DNA from: Halorussus pelagicus
GTDB lineage: Archaea; Halobacteriota; Halobacteria; Halobacteriales; Haladaptataceae
NCBI RefSeq assembly: GCF_004087835.1
Contig: NZ_CP035119.1
Span: 1,860,001 to 1,924,000 of the forward strand
DNA length: 64,000 bases
Direction of reading: 5' to 3'
Below are positions 44,335-61,102 of the stretch, in pieces (position 1 is the first letter of the stretch; every line of letters starts with the position of its first letter). Made by a program: the position numbers and the translations under genes. The notes beneath the pieces are model-generated. The model was not told where the DNA came from, made no database searches, and saw nothing but the letters and a program-made list of their open reading frames with translations.

Positions 44335-44500
44335 TCGGCGCGCGCTGGCGCGGTCCTTGTGACCGCGCCGATACGTGCGAGGGCCGAGTAGCGCAGCGTA
44401 GCGAGCAACGCAGGCGGTTGGGGAGGACGAGGTGCTGTGCGGTGTGGGGCGGTGCGGTTGACTCCATCGATCACGCCTGAAGCTAGCTCTCTTCCTCTTC
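44335..44500. repeat. Structured intergenic repeat element, copy A
   Basis: About 165 bp between convergent genes (hisE and the ASCH gene), related to copy B at 53740-53900. It opens with a perfect 9-bp hairpin, GGCGCGGTC (44347-44355), CTTGT, GACCGCGCC (44361-44369). It continues with GCAGGCGGTTGGGGAGG (44410-44426), GTGCTGTGCGGTG and GACTCCATCG, and ends CGCCTGAAGCTAGCT (44474-44488). In copy B the hairpin has a different sequence but pairs perfectly. It has no coding character. Likely a structured RNA or mobile-type repeat. Confidence 0.72.
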
Positions 44501-53598: not shown

Positions 53599-53739
53599 GG
53601 GTAGGGTACAGGGACTACGGCCCGAAATACCCCTCGGAACCGGGCGACGGCACGGTCCCGCGCGACCGACTCGATGCTGGCTGTCCCCGCCTCGCTGGCG
53701 TCGTTTGTTGGTCTCTCTCGACTACTGACTCGTCCACTT

Positions 53740-53900
53740 GGCGCGTGCTGGCGCGTCGCCGACGGCGACGCGCCAACCGCGCGAAGGCTGAGGACCGCAG
53801 GCCTGTGGCCGAGGACTGCAGGCGGTTGGGGAGGTGTGAGGCTGTCGCGGTGCGGTGCTGTGCGGGCGACTCCATCGCTCAAGCCTGAAGCTAGCTTCTG
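53740..53900. repeat. Structured intergenic repeat element, copy B
   Basis: Related to copy A at 44335-44500. The hairpin is longer here: GGCGCGTCGCC (53750-53760), loop GAC, GGCGACGCGCC (53764-53774), 11 perfect pairs. The shared core is GCAGGCGGTTGGGGAGG (53819-53835), then GTGCTGTGCGG, GACTCCATCG, and the end GCCTGAAGCTAGCTT (53883-53897). It lies in the 475-bp gap between divergent mutS and a thioredoxin-like gene. The rest of that gap (53900-54073) holds CCCCACCGAAACC twice and no gene. Confidence 0.72.
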
Positions 53901-60972: not shown

Positions 60973-61002
60973 GGTTTATCACCACGGGCGTTGCGTGGTT
61001 CA

Positions 61003-61102
61003 GCCCGCGAGATGCGACGCATCTCGCGGGCCACATTCCGTCCTGCGGCCGACGGCGTGCGGAACCGCTCGGCGTTCGCCGCCCGAAATCGCGGCGAACG
61101 CC
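61003..61102 (-). promoter_or_regulatory. Two strong hairpins in the likely 5' leader of rpl15e
   Basis: Hairpin 1: GCCCGCGAGATGC (61003-61015), loop GAC, GCATCTCGCGGGC (61019-61031), 13 perfect pairs. Hairpin 2: GGCGTTCGCCGC (61071-61082), loop CCGAAATC, GCGGCGAACGCC (61091-61102), 12 perfect pairs. The nearest TATA-like sequence (CCTTAAACAC on the minus strand) lies about 61177-61186, so a leader of roughly 170-190 nt is possible. The remaining part of the 60973-61327 gap shows no gene. The role is inferred. Confidence 0.6.

What the first reader, a model, noticed from the sequence alone, without database searches (positions are those of the whole stretch)
44335..44500. Intergenic element with a hairpin kept by compensatory change (copy A, pair with 53740-53900)
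Seen directly: two intergenic blocks about 9.3 kb apart share GCAGGCGGTTGGGGAGG, a GCTGTGCGG run, GACTCCATCG and CCTGAAGCTAGCT in the same order. Each opens with a perfect hairpin whose stem sequence differs (GGCGCGGTC/GACCGCGCC in A, GGCGCGTCGCC/GGCGACGCGCC in B) while pairing is complete in both. A second, weaker pair (GCGT/ACGC in A, GCAG/CTGC in B) precedes the same GGCGGTTGGGG core. Compensatory change in two copies argues for a functional folded RNA, or for a structured DNA element that spreads. It sits between convergent genes here, so it is not a simple promoter.
Basis: partly seen in the sequence, partly recalled or inferred. Interest (0 to 1): 0.7.

Follow-up and report, generated by a model that had tools for sequence, protein, structure and literature searches.

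The report
Haloarchaeal repeat of swappable hairpin cassettes
The two blocks are copies of a previously undescribed repeat scattered between genes of many salt-loving archaea. It is built from interchangeable hairpin pieces whose loops look made for folding single-stranded DNA rather than RNA, and closely related species swap the pieces in and out at the same sites.

Summary
Copies A and B are two of at least 51 copies in this Halorussus genome. The family occurs patchily in 18 of 77 sampled haloarchaeal genera, and no Rfam family matches. Each copy is a mosaic: an outer-stem hairpin domain, optional extra hairpins, a variable hairpin, an almost invariant GGNTGGGGAGG core, a G-rich run and an AGCTAGCT tail. 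Pairing is strongly supported. Between sister species 93% identical, sites are mostly shared but whole hairpins are replaced while core and tail stay. So the 'compensatory change' is largely cassette exchange. Loops flanked by tandem G·A are overwhelmingly GNA triloops or GNAB tetraloops, motifs known to stabilise DNA hairpins, and rarely GNRA. G·T pairs are nearly absent. Hairpins of the same design sit beside IS200/IS605 tnpA genes. Best reading: a non-autonomous mosaic repeat that folds, and probably moves or recombines, as single-stranded DNA. The agent is unknown: many copy-rich genomes lack Y1 transposase. A transcribed RNA is not excluded.

The parts
44335..44490 (+). Copy A of the repeat (whole element, from the 5' domain to the tail palindrome)
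   Evidence: R1 hit 44335-44382, 56.5 bits; sequence; orthologous site occupied in four Halorussus genomes in the same orientation and absent in two
44338..44378 (+). Copy A outer stem GCGCG 44338-44342 / CGTGC 44374-44378, closing the 5' domain
   Evidence: helix 1 of A1, 99.1% of cells paired
44347..44369 (+). Copy A stem 1 GGCGCGGTC/GACCGCGCC
   Evidence: helix 2 of A1, 9 of 12 pairs changed on both sides
44388..44409 (+). Copy A variable hairpin (M3): GT-A-GC-GCA-GC[GTA]GC-GA-GC-A-AC, GNA triloop
   Evidence: sequence; family grammar tested
44416..44432 (+). Copy A core GGTTGGGGAGG plus following GG; possible two-layer G-quadruplex
   Evidence: G tracts invariant, loop positions vary, in copies found independently of the core
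44432..44459 (+). Copy A G-rich run GCTGTGCGGTGTGGGGCGGTGCGG
   Evidence: sequence
44460..44489 (+). Copy A tail GACTCCATCG...CCTGAAGCTAGCT with AGCTAGCT palindrome at 44481-44488
   Evidence: sequence; same tail in family
53738..53898 (+). Copy B of the repeat (whole element)
   Evidence: R1 hit 53738-53786, 61.6 bits; sequence; same site occupied in two other Halorussus genomes, absent in several
53741..53782 (+). Copy B outer stem GCGCG 53741-53745 / CGCGC 53778-53782
53749..53775 (+). Copy B stem 1 TGGCGCGTCGCCG/CGGCGACGCGCCA
53792..53817 (+). Copy B variable hairpin (M3): GG-A-CC-GCA-GGCC[TGT]GGCC-GA-GG-A-CT; loop is TGT, not GNA
   Evidence: sequence; grammar
53824..53841 (+). Copy B core GGTTGGGGAGGTGTGAGG
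53868..53898 (+). Copy B tail GACTCCATCGCTCAAGCCTGAAGCTAGCTTC

Best explanation
Copies A and B belong to an undescribed haloarchaeal interspersed mosaic repeat of about 150-300 bp. It is a non-autonomous, REPIN/PATE-like element made of exchangeable hairpin cassettes. SHOWN: high copy number, intergenic position, fixed order of parts, pairing with covariation, free combination of cassettes, replacement of whole cassettes at sites shared by sister species, and tail-to-tail inverted pairs in some genomes. INFERRED: the top strand is shaped to fold as single-stranded DNA when exposed (for example on the lagging-strand template or during recombination), through GNA/GNAB loops, tandem sheared G.A pairs and a possible two-layer G-quadruplex at the core. 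Cassettes are swapped between copies by ectopic recombination at the conserved anchors. The element spread through single-stranded intermediates, probably with the help of an HUH-type or other trans-acting enzyme not yet identified.
For: Copies: 51 strong R1 hits in the genome, up to 115 per genome in relatives; best pairs about 70-83% identical to each other with unrelated flanks. Pairing: stem 1 has 9 of 12 pairs changed on both sides, 93.4% of cells paired against 85.5% shuffled and at most 66% slid. M3: 109 of 149 GA-NN-GNA-NN-GA motifs complementary against 39 expected, maximum 55 in 2,000 re-pairings; A.A-type helices 250 of 308 cells paired against 183, maximum 201. DNA-type loops: all but one of 39 loops between tandem G.A in this genome are GNA or GNAB, none GNRA; over all loci about 127 GNA, 18 GNAB, 6 GNRA. 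GNA minihairpins: 52 against 11.3 in shuffles, maximum 19. GNA/GNNA are extraordinarily stable DNA loops (PMC4686876) and GNNA/GNAB stable DNA tetraloops (PMC8373063). G.T and A.C equally rare in long stems: 4 and 3 against 741 Watson-Crick. Exchange: site A in two species 93% identical keeps M3 and core but has a different stem-1 interior; H1 swapped in about 5 and M3 in about 6 of 11 shared copies compared by eye. Six Halorubrum orthologues each carry a different M3. Cassette types combine independently, all p>0.2. M3-type hairpins occur 5' of tnpA at IS200/IS605 loci L189, L190, L192.
Against: Genomes with 39-115 copies have no Y1_Tnp (PF01797), so that transposase is not the present mover. 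No clean empty site or target-site duplication was found; the one copy absent from G014 lies in a region that differs beyond the element. No near-identical dispersed copies, so no sign of recent movement. Copy B's M3 loop is TGT. The predicted DNA fold of copy A is no better than shuffles (z -0.41); copy B is (z -3.15), but so is its other strand. The G.U argument is weak: RNase P of a Halorubrum also has only 2 G.U in 64 standard pairs. Many Halorubrum copies have a TTATAAA box about 20 nt upstream, which could be a promoter.
Confidence: 0.55

Rival explanations
1. A family of structured non-coding RNAs: each copy is a small RNA gene whose transcript folds into the helices, and helices are kept by selection on RNA.
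For: Strong covariation; one strand carries the special loops; tandem G.A also stable in RNA (general knowledge); TTATAAA boxes upstream of many Halorubrum copies.
Against: GNA/GNAB loops dominate and GNRA is rare; G.U hardly above A.C; in Halorubrum the TATA-like box is only about 20 nt from the element, which would place a start inside the outer stem; Halorussus copies show no such box in the flanks inspected; no Rfam match; whole hairpins are swapped between orthologues.
Confidence: 0.2
2. A double-stranded DNA or cruciform element kept for a host role (transcription end point between genes, supercoil barrier or nucleoid-protein site), as proposed for bacterial REP/BIME, and homogenised by gene conversion.
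For: Intergenic, convergent position enriched: 12 of 29 against 7 of 44 intergenic gaps in the window (A corrected by hand); long perfect palindromes; sites mostly shared between sister species.
Against: Also found between divergent genes, e.g. copy B; patchy, with none in G008 of the same genus; GNA loops and tandem G.A make sense only for one folded single strand.
Confidence: 0.15
3. A classic MITE moved by a DDE transposase through terminal inverted repeats; the tail-to-tail composites with TCGGCGCG...CGCGCCGA ends are the mobile form.
For: About ten composites with inverted ends in G001.
Against: Single copies such as A and B have no terminal inverted repeat; no target-site duplication seen by eye in the composites; the 18-37 nt spacer between tails is unrelated from pair to pair.
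Confidence: 0.06

Closest known systems
Bacterial REP / BIME / REPIN elements (PMC3116915, PMC2817692)
   Same: Many intergenic palindromic copies, mosaic composites, inverted pairs (REPIN-like doublets in G001), one-strand hairpins.
   Different: Longer and multi-hairpin with swappable cassettes, invariant G-rich core, no RAYT/Y1 gene needed, archaeal.
PATEs, palindrome-associated transposable elements of Haloquadratum walsbyi (PMC3119063)
   Same: Haloarchaeal, non-coding, palindromes, no target duplication, heterogeneous sequence, link to IS605-type ends.
   Different: PATEs carry two near-terminal palindromes and some show recent strain-specific insertion; here hairpins cluster at the 5' side, copies are old, and there is a conserved core and tail. 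No direct sequence comparison could be made (supplement not held).
IS200/IS605 subterminal hairpins
   Same: M3-type hairpins with the same grammar lie 5' of tnpA at L189, L190, L192.
   Different: The element encodes no transposase and its core and tail are not found at those ends.
Integron attC sites
   Same: From memory only: structure kept while sequence varies, folded single-strand recombination site.
   Different: No integron integrase or attC core motif was looked for or seen.

Membership tests
REP/REPIN | High-copy intergenic palindromic repeat | tested here: met
   51 copies, all 29 classified ones intergenic
REP/REPIN | Associated RAYT (Y1 transposase) | tested here: not met
   No PF01797 in G001, G002, G003, G010, G016, G019, G027 despite 39-115 copies
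REP/REPIN | Inverted pairs with spacer | tested here: met
   About 10 tail-to-tail pairs in G001, G004 L285, L287; not the usual state in G000
PATE | No terminal inverted repeats, no target duplication | tested here: inconclusive
   No terminal inverted repeat in single copies; no clean empty site found
PATE | Near-terminal palindromes related to an IS605-type transposon | tested here: inconclusive
   M3-type hairpin shared with 3 of 18 tnpA loci; ends themselves not alike
IS200/IS605 MITE | Mobilising Y1 TnpA in the genome | tested here: not met
   Absent from many copy-rich genomes
Known RNA family (Rfam 15) | Match above gathering score | tested here: not met
Non-coding RNA gene | Transcription | not testable with these tools
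   No RNA-seq held
MITE (DDE type) | Terminal inverted repeats and target-site duplication | tested here: not met
   Single copies lack both; composites have inverted ends but no duplication by eye

The most novel reading that the evidence does not exclude
A genome-wide system of single-stranded DNA 'Lego': chromosomal elements whose hairpins are selected as folded DNA (GNA/GNAB loops, tandem G.A, G-quadruplex core) and are continually exchanged as cassettes between sites by a dedicated recombination activity that recognises folded single strands in molar K+.
Probability: 0.25. Interest if true: 0.85.

Novelty: new variant of a known kind. Interest (0 to 1): 0.62.

Why it matters
If right, this is a large, apparently undescribed repeat family in at least 18 haloarchaeal genera whose copies are built from swappable hairpins with a readable design code for folded DNA. 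It would give archaea a counterpart of bacterial REP/BIME elements, show rapid cassette exchange at fixed chromosomal sites in polyploid organisms, and offer a natural data set for testing which DNA hairpin loops evolution uses in vivo. It also warns that covariation, usually read as proof of RNA, can come from exchanged DNA hairpins.

Tried and rejected
Rfam at gathering and at E<=1: nothing relevant. IS200 TnpA as current mover: rejected by absence from copy-rich genomes. Terminal inverted repeats around Halorubrum copies: only a few near matches, not general. G-quadruplex energy in ViennaRNA: uninformative, since the thrombin aptamer also scored zero. Naive hairpin finder for M3: picked wrong hairpins, replaced by explicit motif tests. 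Viral contigs: 9 pattern hits, none an element on reading; phages: none; only Halorussus plasmids. Literature: no paper found that describes the family; the 2025 RepRanger survey holds no mention of haloarchaea.

Full report
OBSERVATION. Genes: copy A sits between hisE (+) and an ASCH-domain gene (-), convergent; copy B sits between mutS (-) and a thioredoxin gene (+), divergent.

FAMILY. The window lies in a Halorussus genome: relatives G004 and G010 share contig lengths with H. aquaticus NZ_CP100400.1 and H. amylolyticus NZ_ML974131.1. The core pattern occurs 35 and 56 times against 4 and 1 for reversed controls. A covariance model of the 5' domain, built from 23 copies, gives 51 hits at E of about 1e-6 or better in the genome. 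It gives 115 hits in G001, 23 and 21 in G004 and G014, 4 in G013 and none in G008. In the class, 75 of 292 genomes and 18 of 77 genera carry the strict core, with one control hit. Named hosts include Halorussus, Halorubrum, Halosimplex, Haladaptatus, Haloparvum, Halobium and Haloglomus. The R1 model finds nothing in G027, a copy-rich genome of another family, so 5' domains diverge between genera while the core stays.

ANATOMY. 5' outer stem GCGCG/CGCGC enclosing stem 1; optional hairpins M1 and M2 either inside or after this domain (L017, L006 inside; L004, L009 after), and in L024 and L260 a further module inside M1; variable hairpin M3; core GGNTGGGGAGG-N-GTGAGG; G-rich run; one of two middle boxes and one of two tails ending in AGCTAGC. 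In copies found through the 5' model alone, the G tracts of the core are essentially invariant and the loop positions vary, as a quadruplex would allow. Quadruplex formation was not shown.

STRUCTURE. Stem 1: 9 of 12 pairs changed on both sides, 93.4% paired, well above shuffled and slid controls. M3 comes in two main grammars: 2-bp steps separated by tandem G.A and closed by a GNA triloop, or 2-bp steps separated by A.A and GCA/GA. Both show far more complementarity than re-paired controls. Loops between tandem G.A are GNA or GNAB in 38 of 39 cases in this genome. Over all loci about 127 are GNA, 18 GNAB and 6 GNRA (some other loop sizes counted there are chance matches). GNA and GNNA/GNAB loops are established stable DNA hairpin loops (PMC4686876; PMC8373063, citing Yoshizawa 1997 and Nakano 2002), whereas RNA favours GNRA and UNCG (general knowledge). 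Long stems hold 741 Watson-Crick, 4 G.T and 3 A.C pairs; a haloarchaeal RNase P has 62, 2 and 0, so this argument is only supportive.

EVOLUTION. Site A is occupied in the same orientation in G000, G010, G014 and G016, holds two inverted copies in G012 and an expanded degenerate array in G001, and is empty in G009 and G013. Site B is occupied in G000, G002 and G015, is a 3' remnant in G004, and is empty in several others. In the 93% identical pair G004/G014, 18 of 20 G004 copies have an orthologous locus. In 11 pairs with a core in both, I judged by eye that stem 1 was replaced in about 5 and M3 in about 6, while core and tail stayed alignable. At site A itself the stem-1 interior was swapped and the GNA loop changed only at N. 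Six Halorubrum species share one site and each has a different M3. Module types assort independently across the genome (crude classification). Thus most of the covariation comes from exchanged ready-made hairpins. In one tail-to-tail pair the 21-nt spacer is inverted between G004 and G014 (L285/L303). G001 has about ten such pairs, with spacers of mostly 33-37 nt and unrelated sequence.

MECHANISM. I prefer a single-stranded-DNA reading: the special loops, tandem G.A and the G-rich core all lie on one strand, and the same M3 grammar appears 5' of IS200/IS605 tnpA genes, whose transposases act on folded ssDNA (abstract of PMC6006769). Present Y1 transposase is absent from many copy-rich genomes, so either another enzyme acts or spreading is past and only recombination continues. 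Haloarchaeal polyploidy and gene conversion (general knowledge) would supply cassette exchange. Transcription could not be tested; the upstream TTATAAA box in many Halorubrum copies keeps RNA open.

NOVELTY. No Rfam family, no paper found and no phage match. Closest kinds are REP/BIME/REPIN and haloarchaeal PATEs; the defining RAYT association is not met. I file it as a new variant of the interspersed palindromic repeat kind.

Noticed in passing
L189, L190, L192 (IS200/IS605 loci), about 180 nt 5' of tnpA: Long hairpin with CCCCCNCCCT/AGGGNGGGG arms (GCTAAGCCCCC...GGGNGGGGATACAGCGCC) whose tip is an M3-type hairpin cassette; L191 has a related one.
   Followed up: partly
L285 against L303: 21-nt spacer between two AGCTAGCT tails is inverted between two sister species, hinting at recombination at the tails.
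   Followed up: partly
G001 loci L321-L331: Tail-to-tail composites with inverted TCGGCGCG ends and spacers of near-constant length but unrelated sequence.
   Followed up: partly
Halorubrum loci such as L073, L108, L109; G000 L020: Copies continue into another module with GGTGGGACTGAAAGGGGC...GGCTGGGGCTTTGG arms; one Halorussus copy (L020) has a GTGGACTGAAAGGGGC version.
   Followed up: no
5' flanks of many Halorussus copies (e.g. L021, L028, L330): Pyrimidine-rich TTTTCCACG often precedes the 5' end; possible target or true element end.
   Followed up: no
window 60992-61073 (-): Match to the Rfam eL15-Euryarchaeota ribosomal protein leader, 35.7 bits.
   Followed up: no
L207 3505-3905 (G001 site A): Tandem expansion of the GTGCGGTGCTGTGCGGGGCG run of the element.
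   Followed up: no
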